NCBI GenBank assembly: GCA_036504215.1
Contig: DASXVO010000054.1
Coordinates: 1-64,000, forward strand
Length of the DNA stretch: 64,000 nucleotides
Direction: 5' to 3'
Origin: Vicinamibacterales bacterium
Lineage (GTDB): Bacteria > Acidobacteriota > Vicinamibacteria > Vicinamibacterales > Fen-181
The position numbers and the translations under genes are program-made. Below are positions 39,981 to 55,325 of the stretch, one piece after another (position 1 is the first letter of the stretch; every line of letters starts with the position of its first letter). The notes under the pieces are model-generated. The model searched no databases, was not told the DNA's origin, and saw nothing but the letters and a program-made list of their open reading frames with translations.

Positions 39981-40281
39981 AGGTCCCTCCTTCCGGCTGG
40001 CACGCAGCCGGCGCCGCGCTGGCTGCAAATCACGGCCCAACTCGGCAATGTTGGGATCAACCGTTCGCCCGCTGTCGTTGCCGGCTCCGCCCGGTCATTG
40101 GGCCCAGGCGTCAGGTCGGCCTCATGTCCGCGTCGACGGCCAGGGGCGGGTCATCGGACGCCACCTGCCTTGTCGCGGGGTCGGGCAGGGCGAACAACAT
40201 CCCGGGCGCGGCCGAGGGCATCACCGAACCGCGCGTGACCATCGCGGCGGTCGCGTGATGGCGCGTTGTGGCGGCGCCGTG
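39981..40281. other. No gene recognised
   Basis: This 300-base stretch between the degraded exported gene and the Fis-like fragment has no credible frame, ribosome site or hairpin on either strand. Confidence 0.4.
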
Positions 40282-40509
40282 TCAGCCGGCGTCGGGCTGG
40301 GAGCGACTTGTCTCCAGGAGTCCGAGCCTCTCGCGTTTGAGGTAGAGGCCCTTGCGCGACAGGCCCAGGAGTTTCGCGGCTTCGTCCATCCGGTTGCCGG
40401 AGACCGAGAGCGCGTTTGTGACGTGGGCGCGCGAGAAATCGATGTACAGCGCGGCGGCCAGGCGCAGGTACGCGGCGAGCAGTCGGAGCTTGTCGTCCAC
40501 GCCGGCCAT
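40282..40509 (-). pseudogene. Fis-type helix-turn-helix fragment, duplicated end of a sigma-54 activator
   Basis: The 75-residue frame ends R-A-H-V-T-N-A-L-S-V-S-G-N-R-M-D and then [17 protein letters not shown]. It nearly matches the C-terminal DNA-binding domain of the sigma-54 activator remnant at 43782 ([16 protein letters not shown]). No ATPase domain precedes it. ATG 40509 with a GGAG nine bases away could still express a small Fis-like protein, so function is not excluded. The next 350 bases upstream (40510-40858) hold no recognised gene. Confidence 0.6.
40287..40446 (-). repeat. Direct repeat, copy 1 (flanks the ATPase gene)
   Basis: About 160 bases align with 43787-43946 at a constant offset of exactly 3500, with no gaps. 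The block includes more than 40 consecutive identical bases (from 40326). It encodes the Fis-type helix-turn-helix. Confidence 0.85.
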
Positions 40510-40858: not shown

Positions 40859-43261
40859 TCAAGGGTGCGGCGTGCGCTCGATGACGACGAAACGGCGCTT
40901 CTCGCCCTTCTTCCGTCGCTCCTCCGGATCCAGCCACTCGAGCGGAACGAGCACGTGGCGCCTGAGCTCCGCAGATTCCTCGAACCGCGGGACGTTCGAG
41001 ACGAGGATGCAATCGCCGCGCACTTCCTCGAAACGGGCCGCCAGGATCTCCATGCTGCGGAACCCGTTCACCGGCACCATGTCGTGGAACAGCTGGAGGA
41101 CGGCCCGCTGAATCGTGCGGATCGGCCGGTCCGGCCGGTCGAGCAGGGAGAGCATCGAATACACCTGCTCGGTCCTGAGCGGCGCGTCCGCCTTCTCGAG
41201 CCGCTCCAGAATCCCCGGCCTGCCGATCAGTCTGTACGCGGCAAGGTCCTCGCCGAAATCGGCCTTGCCGAGCTCCTCCGCGATCGCGTCACGCGAAGGC
41301 CCGCCGGAGAGCTCCGTGAGATCGAGAATCGGGCCGTTCAGCCGGGATACGAAGTCGGAGCCCTTCGTCGTCGGCTTGTCCCCGCCCACCATGTCCTTCA
41401 GGCTGCTGGTGGAGGCAAAGACCCAGGCGCAGCGCTTGAGGCGATGTGAGTGCCCGTCCTTCATGAAGTGGCCGTCCCAGAGGGGACCGAGAAACAGCGG
41501 TATGGCGTCGAATCCCTGGATGGGCGCGTTGATTTCGTCGACGAATACCAGCGTCCGCCTCTCCGTTCGGCTCAGGATGGCTGCGATCGCCGTCAGGCAG
41601 TCGATCACCTCTTCGCTGCTCGCCATCTGGGCCATCGAGAACTCGACGAACTCCATGCCGAAACGATCGGCCAGGCACTTGGCGAGGAACGTCTTGCCCC
41701 AGCCGGGAGCGCCGGTCACCAGACAGCTCAACGGCCGGGCCGGATCCGGGTCGCGCTTGAACGTGCCCACGGACCAGACCAGCCTGTTGATCGCCGTGCG
41801 CTTGGGGCTGCCGACGCAGATGTACTTCTTGAGGCTCCCTTCCGCGCGCCAGAGCTGGAGCTTATTATTGCGGACGGTACCGATCCCCGACGAGGAGGCA
41901 ATCCAGGCCCGCCACAGGTCGTCGTAATTCTTGGGAGGCGGCGGCGCAGGGAGTGGGTGGTTCCCCGGAAGCGAGACGTTGGACAGAATCATGCCGTGCG
42001 GCCTGCGGCCGCTGCCACTGGACGCCTCGGTCCATTCGTAGGCTACCGCGAGCGCCCGCTGACACTGCAGGCCAAACGCGTCGGGACCCGACTGGAGCCG
42101 CTGCGCCACGAGGCTGGCAAACAGGACCGACGTCCTGCCGGTGTTGGCTCGCTGCTTCGCCCGGTCCAAATCCACCAGGTGACAGCGGTGCTTCGCGCGT
42201 CCTTGCGCCCGTCGGCGCCGCATGTGAGCAGAAGGGTTTCCGTCGCCAACAAGCTCCAGGGCAAACAGCTTGTTGTCGTCGCAGAGCACGACCGCGTGCT
42301 TCGGGGCGGGAAGGCATGCCTGTGGTCCAGCAGTTGTCGGGTTGGCCGCGGGACCCTCCGGGGAATCCTCCCTGTACCAGAAGGTCCGAGTGAGCTCACC
42401 CAGGAGTTCCAGGCCCGCCCGGCCGAGATTCGGGCCGTGCCACCATTCCCGGCCGGGCTTCAAGTGGTCGGCCAGCTTGAAATCGATCACGACGAGTTCC
42501 AGGTCCAGATCCTGCGGCAAGGCCTTCATCCAGGCTGGGTCTTCCATCTTGCTCCGGATGAACCAGCGCGCCTTCGGTGCGCCGTCGAGCTCGAGGATCG
42601 CGCGAATGGTCTCCTTCCGCATGACGCCCTTGCCGTGGTCCACGATCACGACGGCCGCGATCGTCTTCCCCTTCGTCTTCTCCGTCAGACTCCCGTAGCC
42701 GAATTTGCCCGACTGCGACAGATCGCTTTCCCAGTCGATTCGATAGAGCACCCGGCCCGGGTCGGTATCCGAATCGGACTCGCACCGGATGATCCGGTTG
42801 GTCGGGACGGTGTCACTCGACGCCAGGTTGGCGAGCGTATCCCCGAACGTCCACTCGCAGTCATCCGTCGTCGCGTCTTGCTGGGAGCACAGCCCGCGGC
42901 CTCGCCCCGGCGCCGGAGCGAGGCCGCGGAGGTTCAGGTGCGATAGTCGTGAGTAGGACCGCTCCGCGGGGCAGAGCGCGCACGGAAATACCTCCTCGTC
43001 GGCGGGGTTCCACGCGCCGACGCCAAAGCATGTGTGGCCTGGCACGTTTCTGAGCGCTCTGTAGACGATCGACGCTCCGCAGGGCGACGTCTGGCGCACC
43101 AGGGGCCGGTCGTGACGGACCTCGTAGTGGTGCTCGCCCGGCTGCGAGCTGTGGTGGAGGTTCAGCGGGCTGAGCGTCCAGGTCTCGTCGATGAACCAAT
43201 CGCCGACCACCAGGATGGCGGTATGCGGCGTCTGGGTTTCCGGTGCGGCCGCGTCCGGCAT
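40859..43261 (-). CDS. Degenerate ribokinase/RfaE-like domain fused to an AAA+ ATPase
   Basis: This is an 800-residue cytoplasmic protein; the start at 43261 follows GGGAGAA. Residues ~15-420 resemble a PfkB/RfaE carbohydrate kinase: I-L-V-V-G-D-W-F-I-D-E at the start, R-V-L-Y-R-I-D-W-E like the RfaE L-x-R-I-D-x-E strand, A-A-V-V-I-V-D-H-G-K-G-V like S-D-Y-x-K-G, and G-P-N-L. Where kinases have G-A-G-D it reads T-G-R-T-S (~373-378), so the catalytic aspartate is missing. A C-x-x-C pair near residues 94-97 may bind a metal. The C-terminal AAA+ domain has Walker A G-A-P-G-W-G-K-T (517-524) and Walker B L-V-F-V-D-E-I-N (~571-578). A sensor-plus-motor role is inferred. The gene stands alone between two direct repeats. 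Confidence 0.75.
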   Translation of the reverse strand: MPDAAAPETQTPHTAILVVGDWFIDETWTLSPLNLHHSSQPGEHHYEVRHDRPLVRQTSPCGASIVYRALRNVPGHTCFGVGAWNPADEEVFPCALCPAERSYSRLSHLNLRGLAPAPGRGRGLCSQQDATTDDCEWTFGDTLANLASSDTVPTNRIIRCESDSDTDPGRVLYRIDWESDLSQSGKFGYGSLTEKTKGKTIAAVVIVDHGKGVMRKETIRAILELDGAPKARWFIRSKMEDPAWMKALPQDLDLELVVIDFKLADHLKPGREWWHGPNLGRAGLELLGELTRTFWYREDSPEGPAANPTTAGPQACLPAPKHAVVLCDDNKLFALELVGDGNPSAHMRRRRAQGRAKHRCHLVDLDRAKQRANTGRTSVLFASLVAQRLQSGPDAFGLQCQRALAVAYEWTEASSGSGRRPHGMILSNVSLPGNHPLPAPPPPKNYDDLWRAWIASSSGIGTVRNNKLQLWRAEGSLKKYICVGSPKRTAINRLVWSVGTFKRDPDPARPLSCLVTGAPGWGKTFLAKCLADRFGMEFVEFSMAQMASSEEVIDCLTAIAAILSRTERRTLVFVDEINAPIQGFDAIPLFLGPLWDGHFMKDGHSHRLKRCAWVFASTSSLKDMVGGDKPTTKGSDFVSRLNGPILDLTELSGGPSRDAIAEELGKADFGEDLAAYRLIGRPGILERLEKADAPLRTEQVYSMLSLLDRPDRPIRTIQRAVLQLFHDMVPVNGFRSMEILAARFEEVRGDCILVSNVPRFEESAELRRHVLVPLEWLDPEERRKKGEKRRFVVIERTPHP

Positions 43262-43781
43262 GTGCAGTTCTCCCTGGTCGAGGGGTGCGGCCTCGACGCC
43301 CCCCTCGGGGGAACGTCGACGGACCGGCATCGGGTTCACTGGACGATGACCTCAACGGGCCGTGTTCGCAGGATGTCTTGTGGCGAGTCGAATAGAGCGG
43401 CACACCGCCGCAAACTCGCGAACGGGGTTCGAGGGCTCGAGGTGTCCAGCTGATTATCTTCGCGCGGACGCCCCTGTCAAGGAACGAGAGGCGGAACGAG
43501 GGGCGTGCGCCCGGTCTTCCCAGGCCTGCCACGCGAGGCCCAGGCGCAGGCCCTTCAGGTGCAGCCACATGTGTGAGAAACCGAGGAGCCCAGTCGGAGT
43601 GGTTCTGGCAGCCGCGCCGCCGACGTACTTCGATCGTTGCCGGCGGCGGGTCGGCAGGTAGGGGGGACGACCCGTCCTGGACGAGGAGGGCGAGTCGAAC
43701 TGCAACGCGGAGATGCGGCAAGGCGGAATGGCGGGCTTGTCCCGCCGAAGCGGCGCTAATTCACATCGCCGCGAAGGCGGA
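43262..43781. other. Gap upstream of the ATPase gene, with a short palindromic repeat
   Basis: No gene was recognised in this ~520-base interval. It must contain the promoter of the ATPase gene, but no clear -35/-10 pair stands out. At 43730-43746 it holds GGCGGG-CTTGT-CCCGCC, a REP-like palindrome. Related sequence (G-G-C-T-G-G-C-T-T-G-C-C-C-C-G-C-C) occurs at 13950-13970, at the break of the permease scrap. Confidence 0.45.
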
Positions 43782-44645
<864 letters not shown>

Positions 44646-44670
44646 AAACTCGCCAGATTCGTTAGCAGAG

Positions 44671-44687
44671 GTGGCTAAACCGGCCAC
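44671..44687. repeat. IS21-like terminal motif
   Basis: It contains AAACCGGCCAC (44677-44687) inside the inverted repeat GTGGC...GCCAC. The same AAACCGGCCAC recurs at 47052-47062 and as GAACCGGCCAC at 47027-47037, just before the istA fragment. Multiple short repeats of this kind occur at the ends of IS21-family elements. The activator remnant breaks off about 30 bases away. Confidence 0.4.
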
Positions 44688-44880
44688 ATTTGGCACGCTG
44701 GACTGGACACGAGCCGGCACGCTCCGCCGACGCGGTTCCGCACCCTTCCCGGTCCTCTTCCACACCGAGAGCCACAAATCCAGCCACAACGACGGGACTG
44801 GGTGGGCGACCACGGTGTGTTGACCCGAATCCTCAGCCGAAATAATGTTAGTGTCGCCTTCTGCCGAGAAGCCCGATCCT

Positions 44881-45240
44881 ATGTCGCCAAAGAGTCGCCG
44901 CAGGCCACGCCCCAAGACCAAGATGACGAAGAAGCGTCAGGCTGCGCCGCGACTTGCCCTCGATTACTACACCGTCGTCTTCCATGGCCTCTTCACTGAA
45001 CTCGAACTGAGCGGGTACGAGTACGGATCGCCCCCCGCGGTCCGCTCCAGCTACTGGTTGGTCGTTCCGCCCGGCCACTACGGCACCACCGCAGGACTGG
45101 ATCTCGTTCAGGGATATGCCGTCCGCGTTGAGGAAGAGCTGAAGGCCATGGTTGCGCCGCAGAGCCTTGCGTATTGGCTGCACGTGTACCGACGACTCGC
45201 TCCGCGCTTGCCCGGCCAGTCCCCGGCTACCGTCATGTGA
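44881..45240 (+). CDS. N-terminal part of a split accessory protein
   Basis: From ATG 44881 this reads a Lys/Arg-rich start (S-P-K-S-R-R-R-P-R-P-K-T-K), then a compact domain with D-Y-Y-T-V-V-F-H-G-L-F-T-E and E-E-E-L-K-A-M-V-A, and stops at TGA 45238. The same reading frame stays open directly after the TGA through to 46728. An apparent helix is interrupted: S-L-A-Y-W-L-H-V-Y-R-R-L before the stop and V-R-R-T-L-E-A-A-F-R-K after it. It is most likely one gene with a nonsense mutation (CGA to TGA would suffice). No ribosome site is obvious, and the family was not recognised. Confidence 0.5.
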   Translation: MSPKSRRRPRPKTKMTKKRQAAPRLALDYYTVVFHGLFTELELSGYEYGSPPAVRSSYWLVVPPGHYGTTAGLDLVQGYAVRVEEELKAMVAPQSLAYWLHVYRRLAPRLPGQSPATVM

Positions 45241-45333
45241 GTTCGCCGCACACTTGAGGCCGCGTTTCGAAAGTACGCTCAGCTGTCGCCCTGCAGTCGG
45301 ATCGCCGTTTCGACGGAGGTACCACTCGAAGCG

Positions 45334-46728
45334 GTGTTGCGAGGCCGTATTCGGCAGTCCCGGTACGCTACACCGATAGCGAGGGCGTTACGGCGCAGGC
45401 AGCTCGTCCTCACAGACTTCGGACGAGCCGAACTCCAAGAAGCCCTGGAGGCAGAGAAACTAGCGTTTGAAATCTGGCGGTGCGGTGCAACCCTGCGGGC
45501 GATAGGAAAAGGCACGGGGCTTGTTGTCACGGGTGATGCTCTCGCGTTTCACGACGGTCGCGACGACCAACTTAATCGTCTACTCGAGTCCCACGACAGT
45601 CGTGCAGGGGGAATGGAGGCGTCGGCGACTGGGACAGTAATAGCCAACGACCAACCTCGCGGGTTTCTGCTCGTCCCCTCATACAACGTCCGCGAGGTAC
45701 CCAGTGACCAGTATTTTCGGCTCGCCCGGGCATTCGCAGGACCGCTTCGCATGGCTGACGGGGGGACTTTCAACTTTCTGTGGACTCCGTTCGATGTTCG
45801 TGCTTTCGCCCGTGCGCACGCCCCATATTCGCAGGGCTTCCAAGAGGCGCACGGCGTTCCGCTCATGGCTGCGTTGGCCGTCATTGCAGCCCTGCTCCTT
45901 CGAGTCATGTACCTATGGCGCGAGGGCCAGGAACGTGTCATTCGCTATATTCAAAGGGCATACGAGGGACCATATACGTGGGAGTACATCGTTGAGGAAA
46001 CGAGCACATTCTTGCAGAGTGGGCTCAAGTGGCTGAACGTTACCGGAGTCGAGAAGACGGACGTTGAGAGGACCCTGCGACTGCTAACCCTTCCGCCGGA
46101 TCGTACCCCTATTGACCTCCTCCTTGGCGGTCCGCCGGCCCTGATACTTCCCGTCGCGGAGAATCGGTTCTTTCTTGACTACGCCTGGTTGTACGAGACG
46201 TTCTACACCATGTTCTACGGCATTACGCTGACGAACGAGAACTTCAAGGGAGATGCGCTTGAAGAGGCTGTCCGGAGAGAGGGCGCACCACTGACGCACA
46301 AGCGTTTGAAAGCCGTAGACGGGCAGCAACGTCAGATCGACGCGGCTTTCGCGGTGGGCGGCACACTGGTAATCGCCGAGTGCCGAGCTTTCGGGCGCTC
46401 GCTGGCAGTGGATCGAGGCGACCCGAAAGCAATCAGATACAGAACGACGAGAGTCGATGCGGCGCTCAGCGCCGTGGATGAAAAGGCGAGATGGCTCCGC
46501 GAACGGCCCATCGGCCGGAACTATGACATCTCGCGCTTCGACCGGATCGTCCCGATGGCTGTTACGCCCTTCGTCGAGTTCATTCCCAGCCTGGATCGAT
46601 GGTACTGGCTCGCCCCGGAACTGCCTCGCGTACTTACTCCTGCCGAGCTGGCAGAGGCTCTCGACGAAGGAACACTCGGAGAAAGAATCTGGAACGCCGT
46701 CGAGCGAGGTACAATCCACCAATCCTGA
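45334..46728 (+). CDS. C-terminal part of the split protein, with a nuclease-like end
   Basis: The frame is open from 45241; the first usable start is GTG 45334 (464 residues). One hydrophobic helix (G-V-P-L-M-A-A-L-A-V-I-A-A-L-L-L) lies near residue 185. In the last third, R-Q-I-D-A-A-F-A-V-G-G-T-L-V-I-A-E-C-R resembles the D-x(n)-E-x-K core of PD-(D/E)XK nucleases such as NERD or Mrr types, but with E-C-R instead of E-x-K. G+C content is clearly lower than in the flanks (48-53% in hand-counted lines near 45901-46020). It is probably an acquired accessory gene, possibly inactivated; function unknown. Confidence 0.6.
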   Translation: MLRGRIRQSRYATPIARALRRRQLVLTDFGRAELQEALEAEKLAFEIWRCGATLRAIGKGTGLVVTGDALAFHDGRDDQLNRLLESHDSRAGGMEASATGTVIANDQPRGFLLVPSYNVREVPSDQYFRLARAFAGPLRMADGGTFNFLWTPFDVRAFARAHAPYSQGFQEAHGVPLMAALAVIAALLLRVMYLWREGQERVIRYIQRAYEGPYTWEYIVEETSTFLQSGLKWLNVTGVEKTDVERTLRLLTLPPDRTPIDLLLGGPPALILPVAENRFFLDYAWLYETFYTMFYGITLTNENFKGDALEEAVRREGAPLTHKRLKAVDGQQRQIDAAFAVGGTLVIAECRAFGRSLAVDRGDPKAIRYRTTRVDAALSAVDEKARWLRERPIGRNYDISRFDRIVPMAVTPFVEFIPSLDRWYWLAPELPRVLTPAELAEALDEGTLGERIWNAVERGTIHQS

Positions 46729-47121
46729 ATGTTGCCCGCGATCTTGGGCACCAGGTTACGGTCATCATGGGCGAGGAGACGACAGTAGGGAAGTAGCCGC
46801 GGGCGACAAGGCAACGTGCAGTCGCCAGGCGACGAAGATCGTAGGGCTCGGAATCTAGGGCCTGCACCTACAATGCGCACCACGTACTGAACGGAGGGGC
46901 TCGCGCCGTAGGCGCTCCCCCGTGTACCTCGGCTGCTCAGGCACAGTATTTCCAGCAGGTACACGCAATCCACCAGTACCCTTTCCCTTACCTCTCATTG
47001 CAGGTTTCAGCCTGGGCACACAGCCAGAACCGGCCACTGATGGACACCTCAAAACCGGCCACCACACATCGACGACCGAGACGTTGACGGCGGCGGGGGA
47101 GCGCGTGTTCCCTACGTGGCG
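46729..47121. other. Gap with IS-like terminal repeats, no gene
   Basis: No credible coding frame was found. Two copies of the A-A-C-C-G-G-C-C-A-C motif lie at 47027-47062. This suggests the stretch before 47122 is the terminal region of the degraded insertion sequence. Confidence 0.4.
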
Positions 47122-47493
47122 ATGAGTAACGTATCGGACCGCGAGAAACGACACCAAGTGCTGGCGCCAGGGCGATTGGACTGGCCGCTTCGGCGAATTG
47201 AGGAAACCACGGGGCTTCGACGCGAGACGGTGAGCCTGTATCTGGAGGCGGCCGCCGTTGCGGTGCAGGAGCGCGGGAGCCGACCACGCGCGGGGCCGCC
47301 GCCAACACCGGCCACCACGCCGGAGGTGTCCACCGACCCGGACAAGGCGAGAGCGGCCACCGTGCGCGAGGAGGTGTTCGCGGACTCCGGGCGCACGACG
47401 CCGGCCGTCGGCGCGGTGCCACCCGAGTCGATGGGCGTTCTTGCGGGGTGTTCGTTGCGATCCTCCGGCCCTGCCACGGTGAACCTTCACTGA
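47122..47493 (+). mobile_element. IS21-family transposase (istA) fragment
   Basis: The first ~45 residues, M-S-N-V-S-D-R-E-K-R and then A-P-G-R-L-D-W-P-L-R-R-I-E-E and T-G-L-R-R-E-T-V-S-L-Y-L, match the N-terminal helix-turn-helix of IS21-family IstA proteins, followed by the usual Pro-rich linker. The frame then ends at 47493 without the integrase catalytic core, and no istB follows. It is a dead remnant lying between the split accessory gene and the three-gene operon. Confidence 0.65.
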
Positions 47494-47618
47494 CCTCGTA
47501 GGGTATCGTGCGAGCCTACTGACCCGCGCAACGGCCGGAGCCTCGCCAACAGCAGGCTTTTCGAGCGAGAGCGTAGTTCCGCCGGCCAGGGGTTTCGGGG
47601 ACGCGAGTCTTCGAAGGG

Positions 47619-50171
47619 CTACAGCGTGTCTCCGCCAGGGACCGGAGCCGAGGCACTCAAGAGCCCTTCTCCCCCGTCCGGACCTTCGGTCGCCAGAGAT
47701 GCCTGTGCCTCTGACTTCTGCAGGTCGAACTCGAGCGTGAGCGTGTCCCCGGCCTCGGCCCCCACTCTCCGAAACAGGGGGCCGAGGCCCCATCCTTGGG
47801 CGCCACGGCAGCGTAGGGTGCCGACTGGATTCCCGAGGCGAGTTAGGCGAAAGTCGCGCTCGAGAGATCGCGCGAAGGACGCGGGGATCCCCACAATCCC
47901 GTTCGACACGGAGGCTTCAGAGAGGCGATATACCAGCCGTACGCCATTTGCGGTCCAGCCAGAATCCAACACGTACCGGGATTTCCGAGTGTTCCGACGT
48001 AGCTGAACTGACTCAACCGCGCCTGGTGGAATGGGAACTCCTCGAAGTCCATAAACCTGCGGGGCGTACCGAACTACGACGGGAGAGTACGTCAGCGCCG
48101 CCTGCAGACTCGGGCGGCCGAAACCGTTGCTGATCCACGCGCGCTCGAGTTGTGCGTGCTCCATTACCGATCCATTGTCGAGAAGCACGCGCCACAGATT
48201 CCTTTCTGTGGGGGACAGGAGGGGATGCAACACGGCCCCTTCCCGCCCCGCCACAACCTCTGCCTCGATTTTGAGACATGGATCAAGGCTGCACAGCTTG
48301 AGTAGGATCGCCTTCGGCGGCACGGCTGTCCTGAGGCGGTAGTCTCTAGCCACACCGCCACGGAGCTCGGACAACCGCACGCGTCCCGCCACGGCTACGA
48401 CCTTGTGCACCCGCCGGAGAACTGGGTTTCCATCGATCTCCCGTTTGCAGAACCAGCGATGATCATTGTCCAGCCAGAGCAAATCAGACCTCGTGCGGAG
48501 AAACCGGGAAACGCCTTCAGGGTGCGGTGGCTCAGGGAGTTGCGATCGCAAGGCGTCGTACACGTCCTCCACACAGGCGGTCCCGTACTTGCGGGCGAGG
48601 CGGGAAGCCTCCCGAGACACCTCGCGTACGGATCCCTCGCCAGCCTTCGTCGAAACGAAGCATCCTGACGGAACGTCGAACCGAATCACAGCCGACCGAC
48701 CGAGGGCCTCCGCCAGTTCTCCGAGGAACTGAAGCTCGGAATCGAATGGGATCAGCGCTTCGCCCGCTAGGGCGCTGGCCAACGTCGACGCGGTCGTCGG
48801 CGCCATGCCCTGCGCGGTCTCGAGAGCACGGGCTGCGACTGGTGCAAAGAGCCGCCCTCCCGCTCCGAGGCGCCCTCTCGCTCTGCTGGCAACCTGACGG
48901 ACTCGCTCTCTACTGATGCCGTACTCATCGGCGACCTGCTGCAATGTCGTCCCGCCACGCCCGTCCCATCCCCAGAACCGCAGGATGATCTTGCCGTGAG
49001 TCGCTGTGGAGAACGACATGACGATGGCCTCGAGCTCGGAGAGCAGAGGCAGCCTTCGGGCGCCTTCAACTACCGATCGAAGGCCGCTCAACGCCTTCAG
49101 CCTTCCTTCGTATCCAGCCTCCATCACCAGTGTTGAGGGATCGAGCGCCAGCAACATCGACGTGTCCGAACATCCGGGTGCGGCCGCGCGCAAGTATGAA
49201 CCGAAGCGGGGATCTCTCGCGCGGATCACCTCTGGCCCGAGCACCTGCTCGAGCCTCATGAACTCGACTGCCACGTCGAGGCTCCTCCGTTTCGCGCGCC
49301 GGTCGGCCTCCGCATCGACAGTGAGGCCGACGTGCCCCTGAGGGAGTCGTTCCTCGGTCGAGTTGTGGAGCGGTTCACTCCCACCTGCGAGGCAAGACCG
49401 GCCGGTCGCCGTCTCCAGCGCCGCCAATAGATTGCGCAGCGACGTTCTGCCGAAGTTCTTCGTTCCCATCAGGTCGTTGAGGGACATTCCATTCAGCGCC
49501 GCCGGCTGAGACATCCTACGACCCATGACCAGTGCATTGTCGATTCGGACGCTGATGTCGAGATCTTCCCACTGAAGCCGCTCGGGAATTCCCCATAGTC
49601 GGCCGTCACGCAACGGCAAGCGTGTTCGCAGGTGGTCTTCTGTGCCTGGGCCGGCACTGGTTTGAGGTGTGTCGGTCGTCTGTGCCTCTCCGCCCACCGG
49701 AGCCCCGTTATGTTGTTCCCGTGCCACGACGCTCACAAGCCCGGTGGCGTCTTCGAGGGCCGTCAGAAGGTCGACGAGGGACTTCGGCCCGAAGGCCCAC
49801 GTGTCCATTAGTTCGGTCAGCCGCCAACCGCAAAGACACGTTGGCCGTGCCAGGTTTCGACGTGATGTGAGCGCGTTGTACGCCCGGACGCCCAGGTCGA
49901 GGTCGTCCCATTCCAGCCAGTCTGGAAGTTCGACAATCCGCAGGCTCCCAACTACCCCGATCCTACGGTTTACGGCTGCGACGACCTCACGCGCGGCGCG
50001 TCGGCAGACCGCAGTACCGAGCGTGTCCCAAACCGATCCGTCAAGGTCCTTCAGCAGCAGAGAGGGACCGGCTGTGCCTAACACTGCCGCCGGAACAGGC
50101 TCGGTCAGGTACTCCGCGAGCGAGCCTGGCGCGATCCGCCTCCCGGGCCGGGGGTACCTTGCCATTGACAT
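47619..50171 (-). CDS. Two RNA-polymerase-alpha-CTD-like domains plus sigma-70 region 4-like HTH (850 residues)
   Basis: Residues ~85-141 (W-D-D-L-D-L-G-V-R-A-Y-N-A-L, then W-A-F-G-P-K-S-L) and ~198-254 (W-E-D-L-D-I-S-V-R, then K-N-F-G-R-T-S-L) match the helix-hairpin-helix fold of the alpha-subunit C-terminal domain. Residues ~397-437 (T-L-Q-Q-V-A-D-E-Y-G-I-S-R-E-R-V-R-Q-V) match sigma-70 region 4. The rest looks like several winged-helix units. It therefore combines DNA- or promoter-binding parts of transcription proteins with no polymerase core. Third gene of an operon: the start lies 6 bases after the ATPase stop, and a second ATG at 50165 is possible. Role unknown; DNA recognition is inferred. 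Confidence 0.75.
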   Translation of the reverse strand: MSMARYPRPGRRIAPGSLAEYLTEPVPAAVLGTAGPSLLLKDLDGSVWDTLGTAVCRRAAREVVAAVNRRIGVVGSLRIVELPDWLEWDDLDLGVRAYNALTSRRNLARPTCLCGWRLTELMDTWAFGPKSLVDLLTALEDATGLVSVVAREQHNGAPVGGEAQTTDTPQTSAGPGTEDHLRTRLPLRDGRLWGIPERLQWEDLDISVRIDNALVMGRRMSQPAALNGMSLNDLMGTKNFGRTSLRNLLAALETATGRSCLAGGSEPLHNSTEERLPQGHVGLTVDAEADRRAKRRSLDVAVEFMRLEQVLGPEVIRARDPRFGSYLRAAAPGCSDTSMLLALDPSTLVMEAGYEGRLKALSGLRSVVEGARRLPLLSELEAIVMSFSTATHGKIILRFWGWDGRGGTTLQQVADEYGISRERVRQVASRARGRLGAGGRLFAPVAARALETAQGMAPTTASTLASALAGEALIPFDSELQFLGELAEALGRSAVIRFDVPSGCFVSTKAGEGSVREVSREASRLARKYGTACVEDVYDALRSQLPEPPHPEGVSRFLRTRSDLLWLDNDHRWFCKREIDGNPVLRRVHKVVAVAGRVRLSELRGGVARDYRLRTAVPPKAILLKLCSLDPCLKIEAEVVAGREGAVLHPLLSPTERNLWRVLLDNGSVMEHAQLERAWISNGFGRPSLQAALTYSPVVVRYAPQVYGLRGVPIPPGAVESVQLRRNTRKSRYVLDSGWTANGVRLVYRLSEASVSNGIVGIPASFARSLERDFRLTRLGNPVGTLRCRGAQGWGLGPLFRRVGAEAGDTLTLEFDLQKSEAQASLATEGPDGGEGLLSASAPVPGGDTL

Positions 50172-50177
50172 CAGTCA

Positions 50178-51839
50178 CTACATGACGGGGAGAATCGCGT
50201 CCCTGAACGAGACAACCGCCCTTCGGCTTAGCCGGTCGATTGTGTCTCTGACGTGGAATAGCGCCTCGCTAGGCTCGACAAGTTCGTCACTCGCCGCTAA
50301 TAACTGGGCCAACGCCACGGCGTATTCCGTCAGCGCGACTTCGATCGCCAGATGCCGAAAGGAAGTCTGTTCGGCCGTCCCGCTGCCTTTGGCCGCAGCG
50401 ATCTGAGGATGGTCCAGGTTCACGACGATAGTCCGCTCCGCCTCGACGTACTTCGCCCGCCGCTCGCTCTTGCCCACCGCGTCGAACCTGACTCTGATTC
50501 CTCCGCCCGTCCCTCTCCCGCGGGTCCGCACGGCCGGATCCCCCCTGAGGCTTCCGGCAGGGTCGCGCTCCAAGACCGAGCCTAGGGTACGGGGCGATCC
50601 GCCCTGTCCACCACGTCCGCGGTCAACGCCGGGAGAGCCCTCGATGCTGACCTCTGTGCCAAATGTCAATTCTCCGGGTGTCAGGAACTCATCTGCACCA
50701 CCGGGCGCGGCACCGTCCGGTCCCGGCGCCGGTGAGGAGCGGCCGCGGGCGGCTGCCACCTGACGCCGGAACTCCCGGAAGTCTTCATTGAGGAGGTCCG
50801 CGATCTCGTCAGCTTGCCGGGCCAGTCTCTTTGCTTCTTCGGTAGCTTGTCGGTCCCTGTCCGCTCGCACGAGCTGCCGTCGAACGCCCTCGATACAGGG
50901 GCCAATGAAGGAGTACAGAGCGCGGACGACGCGATTCTCCGGGTTCAAATGCATGGACCGACTCATGTCGAACGCTGGCGGAAGCGCCGAGTCGGACTCG
51001 AGTCGCGGAACGTCGATCTCACCGAAGATGTACTGTGCGCACTCTTTCCCTTCGGCTCCGGCGAGCGTGTTCTCGTGCCAGTTCCCGTTCGAGTACACGG
51101 CAACGCCGCGCGATTCCTCCTCCAACGGGGCCCGTGCAACCCGCACTCGAAGCTCGACATCGCCCAGCAGTCCTGCAACCGCGGGCTCGGGACGGAAAGA
51201 GTGTTCCGAATTTACCTCCGGCTCGATCACCTCGCATGCCCGATTGTTCACGAACACCCGCGCCCCGCGGTCCCGCCAGCGCGCGAGGTGTTGTTCTACG
51301 TATCGGACCACCTTCGCCTGGTCGAGGCGGCTTAGGCGAAGGCCTTCCACGATTACTTCCGTGCCGTTGGGCTCGCCGGTCTCCACTTCCTTTTCGACCG
51401 TCTGCACCGGGATTGGATCCCCGGAGGCCATCGTCTCGACGTCGCAGCGTCGGAGCACGACCTCCGATCGTCGGCCGCATCTTACGGTTCTCACCCTCAG
51501 CGTCTCGCCAATGCCAAACGCCGCCGACTTGCCCGTTCCGAACATTCCGCGGCCTGGTCGGCCCTGCCGACGGTCCTGGTTCTCACCGTGCATCACGAAG
51601 AAGTGCTGAAGACCCAGCCAATCCATACCCCGCCCGTTATCTAAGACACGGATCGTCCTTCGTCGGTCCTCGAGTTGCACCCTCACCTCGGGGATCTTCC
51701 CGGGATCCACGTACTGCAAGCCGTTGGATACGTACTCCCAGATGACCAGCGCTTCGCTCCGAAAGAACGCCGCGCTCTGGAGAAGATCGCGGCCGACGTG
51801 GCTGACGACAAACAGCTCCGGCGTATCCCCTGCAGCCAT
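50178..51839 (-). CDS. GHKL/HSP90-like ATPase
   Basis: This is a 553-residue protein; ATG 51839 follows AGGGAGG and lies 4 bases after the upstream stop. The Bergerat ATP-binding fold is clear: N-box E-Y-V-S-N-G-L-Q (N39), G1 box D-N-G-R-G-M (67-72) and the glycine-rich lid G-R-G-M-F-G-T-G-K-S-A (97-107). A transducer-like region with V-N-N-R-A follows, then a charged helical stretch (~290-345) that may be a coiled coil, a Gly/Pro-rich linker and a conserved C-terminal domain. There is no histidine-kinase phosphoacceptor, so it resembles MutL, MORC and HSP90-type clamps found in prokaryotic conflict systems. It is the central gene of the three-gene operon. Confidence 0.85.
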   Translation of the reverse strand: MAAGDTPELFVVSHVGRDLLQSAAFFRSEALVIWEYVSNGLQYVDPGKIPEVRVQLEDRRRTIRVLDNGRGMDWLGLQHFFVMHGENQDRRQGRPGRGMFGTGKSAAFGIGETLRVRTVRCGRRSEVVLRRCDVETMASGDPIPVQTVEKEVETGEPNGTEVIVEGLRLSRLDQAKVVRYVEQHLARWRDRGARVFVNNRACEVIEPEVNSEHSFRPEPAVAGLLGDVELRVRVARAPLEEESRGVAVYSNGNWHENTLAGAEGKECAQYIFGEIDVPRLESDSALPPAFDMSRSMHLNPENRVVRALYSFIGPCIEGVRRQLVRADRDRQATEEAKRLARQADEIADLLNEDFREFRRQVAAARGRSSPAPGPDGAAPGGADEFLTPGELTFGTEVSIEGSPGVDRGRGGQGGSPRTLGSVLERDPAGSLRGDPAVRTRGRGTGGGIRVRFDAVGKSERRAKYVEAERTIVVNLDHPQIAAAKGSGTAEQTSFRHLAIEVALTEYAVALAQLLAASDELVEPSEALFHVRDTIDRLSRRAVVSFRDAILPVM

Positions 51840-51843
51840 GACT

Positions 51844-52638
51844 CTACCTCCCTCTCAGCGCCCGGACCTGCTCGGCGGCCTCGGTGAGCAGCGCCACGAG
51901 CCCACGATCGTCGGCAACAGCGTTCAGAACGCGGGCGATCCGCCGCTCTCGAACACACCCAACGATGTACTCGTCCACCCGGAAGAGCGATTCGAGATCT
52001 CGGGCCGAGAGTACGTTCGGTCCGCTCCGCCGCAGTATCTCCAGAGCGGGATGCCCGAAGAGCCAAGCACGTTCCCCTCGCTCCCGCTTGGTCGCGAGCG
52101 TGCCTACCCGACTGGTGGCGTTAGGTGGCGAGTCGTCGGAGGCGAGCTGGGCGGCTCGGGCCCTCCCCCGCTGCGTAAGCATCCAACCTGTGTGGCCTGA
52201 CCCGATGACGTTTCCTCCATTCGCCGGCTTCTTTGCGTCCGACAGCGAGACCCGGACGAGTTCGAGGTTGATCTGATCGGGGTACCTCCGCCACGCGAAC
52301 CGTCCAGGGGCAAGCTCGCTCACCCGCTTCGCTACATCCTCAGTGTCAATCCTCACTCCCGCGCCACCGAGCGCGTACAGAGCCAGCGTGACGAGGTCAA
52401 CGCCAGACGGCCGTCGAGTCGTACTCCCAATGGAACGGTTCCGACCGGGAGAGAAAGCGTCTGCGTCGTCCGGTTGAGCGGTGCATGGGTTGGACGCCGG
52501 CGAAGCGGTGAAGCGCGTTCGGCTTCGCACACGTTCAACCGACGGTGGGCGAGGATCGGGTCCGAGTTGCATCACGGTAATGGCTCTCTTGGATTCGGTG
52601 CCCGCGCCTTCACGCCGCAGTCCCTTCCTTCTAGCCAT
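51844..52638 (-). CDS. Winged-helix-like protein, first gene of the operon
   Basis: The 264-residue reading from ATG 52638 is preceded by GAGGTGG. The first ~75 residues are basic and low-complexity. A conserved-looking domain follows: V-D-L-V-T-L-A-L-Y-A-L-G-G-A-G, D-T-E-D-V-A-K-R-V-S-E-L-A-P-G-R-F, then W-M-L-T-Q-R-G-R. This is a helix-turn-helix/winged-helix pattern of the type seen in restriction-associated proteins. A second helical region covers residues ~185-260. The family was not recognised. The 4-base gap to the ATPase gene implies co-translation. It may be the sensor or DNA adaptor of the system; this is inference. Confidence 0.6.
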   Translation of the reverse strand: MARRKGLRREGAGTESKRAITVMQLGPDPRPPSVERVRSRTRFTASPASNPCTAQPDDADAFSPGRNRSIGSTTRRPSGVDLVTLALYALGGAGVRIDTEDVAKRVSELAPGRFAWRRYPDQINLELVRVSLSDAKKPANGGNVIGSGHTGWMLTQRGRARAAQLASDDSPPNATSRVGTLATKRERGERAWLFGHPALEILRRSGPNVLSARDLESLFRVDEYIVGCVRERRIARVLNAVADDRGLVALLTEAAEQVRALRGR

Positions 52639-53252
52639 GCTGGGCCACCTCGTGCCGCTCGGAATGAACCGGCCGCCGAGATTGTATCCGACGTTGGCCC
52701 AACCAGACAGTGCCACGGCCGGAGGGGTGTGCATGACCTCCCGAGTGCGGTGTCTCCGCCACGGTGATTCCGCCGCCGCCACTGGTTGAAGCAAATGGAA
52801 CGACCGGGATACGGAGCTGGTACTAGGAGGGGATCGCGGTCAATTCAAGCCGTACGCGACTTGTGCACCTACCGATGGACAGTCGCCCATAGTGACTCGG
52901 CGGTAGCGTGTCCGATCCCGCGTGAAATCGGGAGGTTCTCACCGAGCCTCCAACTCGACGATGACGATCGCAGAGAGTCGGGGTGACACCCGGCCGCGCG
53001 CAGAGGGCTAACCCGCACGCCGTCCAATTCACCGCGGGAAGCTACGGCGGCTCGGCTCGACAAATTGTCAACTGCGCGTTCAACGCGGGACGAGGGGGGG
53101 AAATGGCTGGCCGACAACTCGATGCCGCCAAGCCTGAGGATTTGCTGACTCGGCGGCACCGCCGTCGTTGCATGTGCCAGAAAGCAGCAACGGCCGTTCG
53201 CTCAAGCCGAACGGCCGCTGGTTGGGATCCGATTTGCATCACTGTCTGGCGA
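52639..53252. other. Intergenic region upstream of the operon and downstream of the subtilase
   Basis: No gene was recognised on either strand in this ~610-base stretch. It should hold the operon promoter. It carries the hairpin described at 53191-53217. Confidence 0.5.
53191..53217 (-). terminator. Terminator-like hairpin after the subtilase gene
   Basis: A perfect 10-bp stem (CGGCCGTTCG with CGAACGGCCG) has a 7-base loop. Read on the minus strand it is followed by T-T-G-C-T-G-C-T-T-T-C. It lies 35 bases after the subtilase stop codon. Confidence 0.65.
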
Positions 53253-53908
53253 CTACTCTCCCCAGATGATTCGACTACCCCAAACGATGCGGTCGGCCGT
53301 GGTGGCACGGCCGCTACCCCACACGATGCGGCTGCCCCATACGATTCTGTCGGCGGACGGTGAGTCCGAACTGCCCCAAACGATCCGGCTACCCCAGACG
53401 ATCCGGTTGCCCCACACGATCCTGTCCGGCGCGACGACGTCTCCGTTGCCCCACACGATCCGGTCGGCGTCCACCGGGTCGGTGTTCCCCCAGACGATCC
53501 GGTTGCCCCACACAATTCGGTTCCCCCAGACAATGCGGTTGCCCCACACGATCCGGTTCGCGTCCACCGCGTCGGACCCCCACACGATGTGGTTGCCCCA
53601 GACGATCCGATTGCCCCACACGATCCGGTCGCCCCAGATCTGCTCGTTCCCCCACACGATCCGGCTGCCCCACACAATGTGGTTCCCCCACACGATCCGA
53701 TCGCCCCACACGATCCGGTTCCCCCACACAATGCGGTCGGCCTCCACGATCCGGTTGCCCCACACAATCCGGTTCCCCCACACGATCCGGTCCGGCGACA
53801 CGTCGTTCCCCCACACGATCTGATTGCCCCACACGATGTGGTTCCCCCAGACGATGTGGTTCCCCCACACAATCCGGTTGCCCCACACGATGCGGTTCCC
53901 CCACACGG
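53253..53908 (-). repeat. 29 tandem 18-base units encoding the R-I-V-W-G-N tail
   Basis: The units are nearly identical at the DNA level (core G-T-G-T-G-G-G-G-N-A-A-C). Blocks of 2-6 units are separated by five spacer codon groups encoding D-V-S-P-D, D-A-V-D-A-N, T-D-P-V-D-A-D, G-D-V-V-A-P-D and similar. Confidence 0.9.
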
Positions 53909-55325
53909 TCCGCGACGCCGTCGTCACGTCGTCCTCGCGCCAGAACGTCAGGCCGCTCGGCGACACGGTCTCGCCGGCAATCACCACGTCGTCGTTCGCC
54001 TTCGGACCGCCGATCGCGATGTTGAGGGACGTCAGCACGTTCAAACTCCCCGCCCCGCAACTCGCAATCCCCTCGGCCGGCAGGAAACTCGCCCCCATCT
54101 GCAGCGCCACCTTCACCTTCACCGGATCGAGCTGCGGGTTCGCCTCGAGAAGAAGCGCCGCCGCCCCGGACACCACGGCGGTGGACATGCTGGTGCCGCT
54201 CATCTGCATGTAACGCTGGTCGCCCACCACGCCCGCGTCGAGGTCGGGATACTGGCCGATGATGCTCGTCCCGGGCGCCTCGAGCGACACGATCCGGTTG
54301 CCCGGCGCCACCAGGTCGGGCTTCATCACGTAGTCGAACATCGTCGGCCCGCGCGAACTGTAGGTGGTCATCACGTCGTCGGACCGGACGGGCGTCTGCT
54401 TCGTGTTGAGCGCCCCCACGGTAATCGCATACGGCGAGTTGCCGGGCGAGTCGATCGCCCCGAACACCATCCGCCCGTCGTCGGTCTTGCCGACATTCCC
54501 CGCCGCCGCGACGACGACCAGGCCGTGCGAGACGGCGCGCGCGACGGCCTGGCAGAGCGGGTCGTCCTCGGACGATTCCATCACGGGGTGGCCGAGCGAC
54601 AGGTTGAGGATGCGGATGTTGAACTGCCGGCGGTGCGCGACGGCCCAGTCGATGGCTTCGATGACGTCGCTGACGGTGCCGGCCCCCTCGGCGTCGAGAA
54701 CGCGCAGGTTCAAGAGGCTGACACCGGGCGCGACACCGCTGTACTCGCCCTGCTGCGGCTGCGCGGCGATGATGCCGGCGACGTGCGTGCCGTGGCCGAA
54801 CTCGTCAACGGCCCCGCCGCGGCGGGTGGTGAAGTCCACGCTCGCGACAATCTTCTGCGCCAGCGCCGGGACGCGCGCGATGCCCGAGTCGATGACGGCA
54901 ATGGTCACGCCCTGGCCGGTGTAGCCGCGAAGGCCCCCGAGCCCCGCCCACACCTGGTCGGCGGCAATCGCCTGGGCGGTGACGGCCATGTTGGTGTGGA
55001 CCTTGACGTCGCCCGACACGTGGTCGATCTCCGCGTCGGCGGCCAGCGCGTCGAGCTGGTCGGGGCTGACGCGAAGGACGCCGCCCTGCTCGAGCCACCG
55101 GGTGGCGGCGGCGCCGTGACGGGCCGCGAGCGCCTCGATCGACTCGCGGTTGCCGGTGACAATGACGTCAATCGACGGCGCGGTGCGGTCGGCGAGGTGC
55201 TGGACGAGGTCGCGCGACAACCGGGCGCGGTGGCCGGGGCCGTCGGCATAAAGGCCGGTCGCGCCGAGCGCGAGGGCGACGACGACCAGGACCAGCGTCT
55301 TCAGGATGGGGAGGCGACGGAACAT
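53253..55325 (-). CDS. S8 subtilisin-like protease with C-terminal VWGN hexapeptide repeats
   Basis: This 690-residue exported protease starts at 55325 after GGAGG, with a signal peptide (T-L-V-L-V-V-V-A-L-A-L-G-A-T-G). An inhibitor-I9-like propeptide lies at ~30-110. The triad sits in A-V-I-D-S-G (D146), F-G-H-G-T-H-V-A-G (H178) and S-G-T-S-M-S (S ~377). From residue ~473 the chain is 29 near-copies of the hexapeptide R-I-V-W-G-N (variants H/Q-I, ending D or S), broken only by 5-7-residue Asp-rich spacers, up to the stop. The repeat tail may form a beta-solenoid or an export or anchoring device; this is inference. A small HTH gene lies just upstream on the same strand. Confidence 0.92.
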   Translation of the reverse strand: MFRRLPILKTLVLVVVALALGATGLYADGPGHRARLSRDLVQHLADRTAPSIDVIVTGNRESIEALAARHGAAATRWLEQGGVLRVSPDQLDALAADAEIDHVSGDVKVHTNMAVTAQAIAADQVWAGLGGLRGYTGQGVTIAVIDSGIARVPALAQKIVASVDFTTRRGGAVDEFGHGTHVAGIIAAQPQQGEYSGVAPGVSLLNLRVLDAEGAGTVSDVIEAIDWAVAHRRQFNIRILNLSLGHPVMESSEDDPLCQAVARAVSHGLVVVAAAGNVGKTDDGRMVFGAIDSPGNSPYAITVGALNTKQTPVRSDDVMTTYSSRGPTMFDYVMKPDLVAPGNRIVSLEAPGTSIIGQYPDLDAGVVGDQRYMQMSGTSMSTAVVSGAAALLLEANPQLDPVKVKVALQMGASFLPAEGIASCGAGSLNVLTSLNIAIGGPKANDDVVIAGETVSPSGLTFWREDDVTTASRTVWGNRIVWGNRIVWGNHIVWGNHIVWGNQIVWGNDVSPDRIVWGNRIVWGNRIVEADRIVWGNRIVWGDRIVWGNHIVWGSRIVWGNEQIWGDRIVWGNRIVWGNHIVWGSDAVDANRIVWGNRIVWGNRIVWGNRIVWGNTDPVDADRIVWGNGDVVAPDRIVWGNRIVWGSRIVWGSSDSPSADRIVWGSRIVWGSGRATTADRIVWGSRIIWGE

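What the first reader, a model, noticed from the sequence alone, without database searches (positions are those of the whole stretch)
47619..52638. Undescribed three-gene operon: winged-helix protein, GHKL ATPase, polymerase-like DNA-binding protein
The three genes are separated by 4 and 6 bases and sit next to IS remnants and a nuclease-like gene. A Bergerat-fold clamp coupled to a protein assembled from alpha-CTD and sigma-region-4 folds matches none of the named defence systems I can recall. A plausible role is ATP-dependent recognition of foreign DNA or of transcribing polymerase, followed by silencing. No effector nuclease is encoded in the operon itself.
Basis: partly seen in the sequence, partly recalled or inferred. 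Interest (0 to 1): 0.82.

Follow-up and report, generated by a model that had tools for sequence, protein, structure and literature searches.

The report
Three-gene DNA-binding ATPase defence island module
A compact set of three genes, an ATP-driven clamp and two DNA-binding proteins (one carrying parts that resemble the promoter-reading pieces of RNA polymerase), keeps turning up together in distant bacteria beside known anti-virus systems, and appears to be an undescribed module that recognises and silences or flags foreign DNA.

Summary
In detail: three adjacent genes (gaps of 4 and 6 bases) encode a winged-helix protein, a GHKL ATPase with intact motifs, and an 850-residue DNA-binding protein with two alpha-CTDs and a sigma-70 region 4. 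To this I add three winged helices and a C-terminal B3/VP1-like pseudobarrel (moderate-confidence model). The trio is a real unit: seven loci sequenced far enough carry all three genes, in three different gene orders, in Acidobacteria and Actinomycetota, with partial copies in Filomicrobium and a Thorarchaeota-labelled MAG. It is rare and patchy.

In the window it lies on a low-GC3 insert of about 8.6 kb that separates two genes adjacent in relatives and truncates one. Five Actinomycetota copies sit beside Lamassu, Dsr1/DISARM-like, BREX, type II or type IIG restriction genes. PADLOC, Pfam and NCBIfam do not recognise the trio, and no paper searched describes it.

Best reading: a paraMORC-type ATP clamp guided by a multi-domain DNA reader, acting in defence by silencing or marking foreign DNA. 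A controller of neighbouring immune operons is the main rival. No function has been tested. Novelty: new variant of a known kind (GHKL defence ATPases).

The parts
51844..52638 (-). Gene 1: winged-helix protein (264 aa as annotated; conserved part residues ~78-264, i.e. 51847-52407; ORF open up to 52794)
   Evidence: AlphaFold model with winged helix at residues 78-170, VIA-align Z 9-10 to MarR/MntR/AF1382 winged helices
50178..51839 (-). Gene 2: GHKL (Bergerat-fold) ATPase, 553 aa
   Evidence: Pfam HATPase_c_3 E 4.5e-10; motifs WEYV.N, DNGRGMD, GRGMFGTGKSAAFG, NGT conserved
51402..51743 (-). GHKL ATP-binding domain (residues 33-146)
   Evidence: Pfam
50205..50504 (-). Conserved C-terminal domain of the ATPase (GGF.V.F...RA.Y...R.I.VNLDHPQI), no known family
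   Evidence: Alignment; no PDB sequence relative
47619..50171 (-). Gene 3: 850-aa DNA-binding protein assembled from polymerase-type and winged-helix domains
49743..49910 (-). First alpha-CTD repeat (residues 88-143)
   Evidence: Pfam reports two stretches; NCBIfam rpoA 88-140; model helices
49407..49571 (-). Second alpha-CTD repeat (residues 201-255)
   Evidence: Pfam 202-253; Z 8.9, rmsd 1.7, 61 residues, 33% id to a solved cyanobacterial alpha-CTD
48867..48989 (-). Sigma-70 region 4 HTH (residues 395-435), recognition helix SRERVRQ
   Evidence: Pfam E 8.7e-08; profile of the family matches sigma-A/RpoD, E 1e-14; present in 9/9 homologues
48048..48635 (-). Three predicted winged-helix domains (residues 513-708)
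   Evidence: AlphaFold secondary structure; VIA-align Z 7-9 to single winged helices and Z 7-8 to tandem SelB winged helices
47691..47972 (-). C-terminal B3/VP1-like DNA-binding pseudobarrel (residues 734-827)
   Evidence: Foldseek prob 0.99-1.0 but E 0.05-0.16 to LEC2/FUS3 B3; VIA-align Z about 7 to ARF1, VRN1, FUS3, VAL1, TEM1 B3 domains over 741-830
44622..53252 (.). Lower-GC3 insert that carries the trio; it separates the S8 peptidase gene from a truncated sigma-54 regulator gene (boundaries approximate)
   Evidence: GC3 of trio 0.70-0.73 against 0.85-0.92 in host-like genes; S8 and intact sigma-54 regulator are 73 bp apart in relative G125 (L057), near each other in L058, L059

Best explanation
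The three genes form a mobile, defence-associated DNA-surveillance complex. Step 1 (inferred from domains): the large protein binds DNA; its alpha-CTD repeats and sigma-region-4 helix keep key residues by which RNA polymerase recognises UP elements and -35 boxes, and its winged helices and B3-like barrel add further DNA contacts, so promoter-like or otherwise marked DNA is bound without a polymerase core. Step 2 (inferred by analogy with MORC/MutL): the GHKL ATPase is loaded there, closes as an ATP-dependent dimeric clamp, with the winged-helix protein as adaptor. Step 3 (inferred): the closed complex blocks or compacts the DNA (transcriptional silencing) or holds it for host nucleases or neighbouring defence systems, since the operon has no recognised nuclease or toxin. 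Shown: the trio is real, conserved, horizontally acquired, has intact ATPase motifs and is found beside defence genes.
For: All seven loci complete enough to judge (window, L001, L005, L037, L038, L039, L040) have all three genes side by side, in orders WH-GHKL-SIG, SIG-WH-GHKL and divergent, with gaps of at most 15 bp or short overlaps where co-directional: conservation through rearrangement means the three work together. No fourth gene is shared between loci. Neighbours of relatives by PADLOC: Dsr1 plus DrmD-like helicase plus PglX-like MTase (L037), BrxC (L041), M.Eco57I-type MTase (L038, and 58% identical in L004 beside a GHKL remnant), type IIG and PD-T7-5 (L039), LmuB (L001, which also has a Schlafen helicase). 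Eco57I-type MTase within 10 kb in 3 of 8 genomes: P about 5e-5 under uniform placement. Insert in the window: GC3 and gene order in relatives. Intact GHKL motifs. Sigma-4 motif RER.RQ kept in 8 of 9 homologues. GHKL ATPases in defence loci: PMC2292703; a GHKL-Shedu protein shown to be anti-phage: PMC12137116; alpha-CTD followed by three wHTH in BREX PglW: PMC12839542; DNA compaction by MORC2: PMC12216690 (title and abstract only).
Against: No effector activity is encoded; no phage data exist. The window itself has no recognised defence neighbour, and L005 has none in the DNA visible on one side. In L037 and L041 the trio lies just upstream of, and on the same strand as, immune genes, as a regulator would. 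The MORC-specific S5 motif is absent, so MORC-style compaction is only an analogy. The B3 and winged-helix assignments rest on a model with mean pLDDT 63.6. L001's large protein lacks alpha-CTDs, so promoter reading by alpha-CTD cannot be essential; L005 alters the sigma-4 recognition helix. Enrichment rests on few loci and assumes uniform placement.
Confidence: 0.45

Rival explanations
1. The trio is an ATP-dependent transcription controller of adjacent immune operons (comparable in role to CapK/CapS, CapW, BrxR): the large protein binds their promoters and the GHKL protein switches it after DNA damage or infection.
For: Only DNA-binding and ATPase domains; sigma-4 and alpha-CTD modules are promoter-reading parts; in L037 Dsr1 starts 55 bp downstream of the trio, in L041 a BREX-like set follows on the same strand. 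CapK/CapS, a GHKL plus wHTH pair, sits beside diverse immune systems and R-M (PMC13373217).
Against: In the window, L005, L001 and L038 no recognised immune gene lies downstream on the same strand. The neighbours differ in nearly every locus. The ATPase is a 550-aa HATPase_c_3 protein with a conserved C-terminal domain; no STAS domain was found in the trio by Pfam.
Confidence: 0.27
2. The trio is a restriction-like system: the complex recognises a site or modification and cuts or recruits a nuclease not yet recognised, perhaps through the ATPase's C-terminal domain or an R-M partner elsewhere.
For: B3-like domains occur as target-recognition domains of restriction enzymes such as EcoRII (established knowledge); VP1/RAV domains noted near MORC genes (PMC2292703); neighbouring M.Eco57I-type and type IIG enzymes in L038, L039, L004; weak GHKL match to BbrUII restriction enzymes.
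Against: No nuclease family in any of the three proteins; no methyltransferase or nuclease is shared by all loci.
Confidence: 0.18
3. The trio is a plasmid- or island-maintenance or recombination module with no immune role that only travels with defence islands.
For: Singleton sigma-4 proteins of related type occur on plasmids and megaplasmids; the window copy lies on an insert.
Against: Found in several phyla, on a 1.17-Mb contig in L001; no integrase, Par or replication gene is a shared neighbour.
Confidence: 0.1

Closest known systems
Prokaryotic MORC/paraMORC GHKL ATPases in restriction-modification loci (Iyer et al. 2008, PMC2292703)
   Same: HATPase_c_3-type N-terminal GHKL domain with intact motifs, patchy spread by transfer, R-M neighbours, DNA-binding partners, VP1/B3-type domain reported in some neighbourhoods
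   Different: No MORC S5 signature, no recognised fused nuclease or TIR domain, no fixed SFII helicase; two dedicated DNA-binding partner genes instead
MZA system (mzaABCDE; as discussed in PMC9523054; NCBIfam NF041931)
   Same: Defence operon containing a sigma-70 region 4 protein (mzaA)
   Different: The large protein matches MzaA only over profile 661-701, 16.3 bits against a cut-off of 800; it has winged helices and a B3-like domain after sigma-4; no Z1, AIPR or nuclease genes found
VcSduA, GHKL-Shedu (PMC12137116)
   Same: GHKL ATPase domain in a tested anti-phage protein
   Different: VcSduA carries a DUF4263 PD-(D/E)xK nuclease; none was found here
BREX PglW (PMC12839542)
   Same: Alpha-CTD-like domain followed by three winged helices
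   Different: PglW has kinase, NERD nuclease and AAA+-like parts and belongs to a BREX operon
CapK/CapS immune-operon regulators (PMC13373217)
   Same: GHKL protein plus wHTH protein beside diverse immune systems
   Different: CapK is an HTH-STAS-GHKL kinase with a STAS-domain substrate; the trio has a larger HATPase_c_3 ATPase and no STAS domain found
Rhizobium leguminosarum pRlX5 GHKL pair (L015)
   Same: GHKL relative (hhalign E 1.3e-27) next to a protein sharing the last winged-helix and B3-like region (hhalign E 1.2e-4, prob 55%)
   Different: Shorter partner without alpha-CTD or sigma-4; no winged-helix third gene found; undescribed

Membership tests
GHKL (Bergerat fold) ATPase | Four ATP-binding motifs (N box, G1, G2, G3) | tested here: met
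   HATPase_c_3 40.1 bits over cut-off 25; motifs conserved
MORC proper | GhXhhpXXRhl motif in the S5-fold domain | tested here: not met
   Motif search negative in all ten homologues, four of them partial
paraMORC (broad sense) | N-terminal GHKL plus S5 domain, R-M or defence neighbourhood | tested here: inconclusive
   GHKL and neighbourhood met; S5 domain not modelled
MZA | MzaA-type protein over curated cut-off | tested here: not met
   16.3 bits against 800, 42 residues only
MZA | Companion mzaB-E genes in the operon | tested here: not met
   No PADLOC, Pfam or NCBIfam match to other MZA components in the trio or P0004/P0005
Shedu / GHKL-Shedu | DUF4263 nuclease domain | tested here: not met
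   No such domain in any of the three proteins
BbrUII/HgiDII restriction enzyme | Full-length match over cut-off (550 bits) | tested here: not met
   39.9 bits, best stretch the N-terminal GHKL part 9-187
CapK/CapS regulators | STAS domain on both proteins and GHKL kinase | tested here: not met
   No STAS family; HATPase_c_3 match instead
Sigma-70 factor | Region 2 as well as region 4 | tested here: not met
   Only region 4 found
B3/VP1 pseudobarrel domain | Fold of residues 734-827 | tested here: inconclusive
   B3 domains at Z about 7 and Foldseek prob near 1 but E above 0.05
Anti-phage defence system | Measured protection against phage | not testable with these tools
   Needs bench work

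The most novel reading that the evidence does not exclude
A class of xenogeneic silencers that recognises foreign DNA by promoter reading: polymerase-derived modules (alpha-CTD for UP elements, sigma-4 for -35 boxes), detached from polymerase, guide an ATP-driven GHKL clamp onto promoters, shutting down transcription of incoming DNA without cutting it.
Probability: 0.2. Interest if true: 0.88.

Novelty: new variant of a known kind. Interest (0 to 1): 0.62.

Why it matters
Prokaryotic MORC-type ATPases are mostly uncharacterised, and their eukaryotic relatives silence genomes by an unsettled mechanism. A three-gene bacterial module with an intact ATPase and an explicit DNA-reader would give a small, testable model. 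If it protects without a nuclease, it would be a defence that silences foreign DNA through promoter recognition.

Tried and rejected
MZA, Shedu, BbrUII and CapK/S membership rejected by profile. P0004 as the fixed effector: rejected, no homologue in other trio loci. Viral contigs: none of 52 pattern matches confirmed; phages and plasmids: only distant GHKL or sigma-4 proteins. The Pseudomonas megaplasmid sigma-4 protein lies in a replication module, not a trio. PDB profile searches with the WH and GHKL families gave no relative and the B3-region profile only chance matches. MzaA search of related genomes returned what look like housekeeping sigma factors and scattered low-scoring matches, none over the cut-off. 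Same-genus contigs (L049, L050) end beside the S8 gene, so the empty site had to be read from wider relatives. Inverted repeats bracketing the region are 83% complementary 23-mers, taken as chance. No tRNA in the window.

Full report
Observation. Pfam gives HATPase_c_3 for the second protein, and two RNA_pol_A_CTD stretches plus Sigma70_r4 for the third; the first has no Pfam match. PADLOC and NCBIfam give no family assignment, only weak or partial matches.

Domain anatomy. The ATPase keeps the four GHKL motifs across homologues (one copy, L039, varies at G1 and G3) and has a conserved C-terminal domain (VNLDHPQ region) of no known family. The AlphaFold model of the large protein (mean pLDDT 63.6, 5-row alignment) shows two alpha-CTD units, sigma-4, three winged helices and a C-terminal alpha+beta barrel. 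VIA-align gives Z 8.9 to a solved alpha-CTD, Z 7-9 to winged helices (and 7-8 to tandem SelB ones), and Z about 7 to several independent B3 domains over residues 741-830; Foldseek ranks LEC2 and FUS3 B3 near the top with probability about 1 but E above 0.05. I treat B3 as likely, not proved. The first protein models as a winged helix at residues 78-170 (Z 9-10 to MarR/MntR types); its first 77 residues are disordered and unconserved, so the start codon is uncertain.

DNA-reading residues. The sigma-4 recognition helix RER.RQ, which in primary sigma factors reads the -35 box (established knowledge), is kept in 8 of 9 homologues. Both alpha-CTDs in the window keep the Arg and Asn of the VR..N motif and the Gly and Ser of the G..S motif, corresponding to E. 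coli R265, N268, G296 and S299 (sequence; correspondence from general knowledge). The number of alpha-CTD units varies from none (L001) to at least two (window, L002, L039), so sigma-4 and the C-terminal half are the constant part.

Conservation. Relatives were found in Actinobacteria UBA2272, Filomicrobium, a Thorarchaeota-labelled MAG (a 3.6-kb contig, so possibly misbinned) and Acidobacteria, and in five more Actinomycetota genomes. The trio is rare: 2 of 297 genomes of the window's phylum at E 1e-20, of which one is the window itself and the other (L009) is a different GHKL protein; 6 of 296 in Actinomycetota; 1 of 299 in Pseudomonadota, the centre genome itself. All seven loci long enough have all three genes, in three different arrangements. 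Pairwise identities of the three proteins correlate (Pearson 0.71-0.92). No fourth gene is shared by all loci. A distant Rhizobium plasmid pair (L015) keeps only the GHKL protein and a shorter partner.

Neighbourhood. PADLOC and Pfam on neighbours: L037 has Dsr1, a DrmD-like PLD-SNF2 helicase and a PglX-like MTase; L041 has BrxC and an NsnB-like ATPase; L038 has an M.Eco57I-type MTase, 58% identical to one in L004 that lies beside a GHKL remnant; L039 has a type IIG enzyme and a PD-T7-5-like gene; L001 has LmuB and a Schlafen-type helicase. Eco57I-type MTases lie within 10 kb of the trio in 3 of 8 genomes, P about 5e-5 for uniform placement. These figures rest on few loci.

Mobility in the window. 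GC3 of the trio is 0.70-0.73 against 0.85-0.92 for most neighbouring genes. In relative G125 the S8 peptidase gene and an 893-aa sigma-54 regulator gene lie 73 bp apart (L057); L059 and L058 have the same order with one gene between them. In the window they are separated by about 8.6 kb carrying the trio, and the sigma-54 gene retains only the part matching residues 625 onward. The trio thus came in with, or replaced, DNA at this spot. The window has no recognised defence neighbour of its own.

How it may work. Shown: a conserved, transferred, defence-associated three-gene unit with an ATPase bearing intact motifs and many DNA-binding domains. Inferred: DNA is read by the large protein, the ATPase clamps on it, and transcription is blocked or the DNA is handed to other systems. 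GHKL proteins in defence have precedents (PMC2292703; VcSduA in PMC12137116, where ATPase and nuclease mutations both abolish protection), and MORC2 compacts DNA (PMC12216690, title and abstract as listed). The chief rival is a controller of adjacent immune genes, as CapK/CapS are (PMC13373217): L037 and L041 would fit it, but the window, L005, L001 and L038 have no recognised immune gene downstream on the same strand. A restriction-like reading cannot be excluded because the ATPase C-terminal domain is unknown.

Comparison. It is not MZA, Shedu, BbrUII, CapK/S or a sigma factor by tested features, nor MORC proper (motif absent). Broad paraMORC membership is open because the S5 domain was not modelled. 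I found no paper describing the trio, but the library holds open-licence papers only. I rate it a new variant of a known kind.

Noticed in passing
window 44845-45240 and 45334-46728 (+): Two low-GC3 open frames, the second resembling a restriction-fold protein by eye (..GTLVIAECRAF..), with no Pfam, PADLOC or NCBIfam match; possibly one broken gene on the same insert.
   Followed up: partly
window 43782-44621 (-): Sigma-54 regulator gene truncated at its N-terminal side by the insert; relatives have 893-959 aa versions.
   Followed up: yes
window 53257-53966 (-): S8 peptidase with a C-terminal tail of tandem 18-nt repeats encoding (D)RIVWGN hexapeptides.
   Followed up: no
window 40859-43339 (-): 826-aa protein with a C-terminal AAA+ domain and a weak carbohydrate-kinase-like N-terminal match.
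   Followed up: no
window 47116-47493 (+): Short frame that looks like a fragment of an IS transposase N-terminus; no Pfam match.
   Followed up: partly
window 40271-40432 and 43771-43932: 162-nt direct repeat, 83% identical, at the 3' end of the truncated sigma-54 gene and 3.5 kb away.
   Followed up: no
L015 7941-10619: Rhizobium plasmid pair of GHKL ATPase and a shorter winged-helix/B3-like partner, a minimal distant relative with no annotation.
   Followed up: partly
L001 8795-9418: A fourth gene (207 aa, no Pfam match) overlapping the winged-helix gene in the UBA2272 locus only.
   Followed up: no
L041 5764-6729: Another sigma-4-like HTH protein between the trio and the BREX-like genes.
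   Followed up: no
L010, L011, L012: Plasmid and megaplasmid proteins sharing the sigma-4 plus winged-helix region of the large protein without GHKL partners nearby in the annotation.
   Followed up: partly
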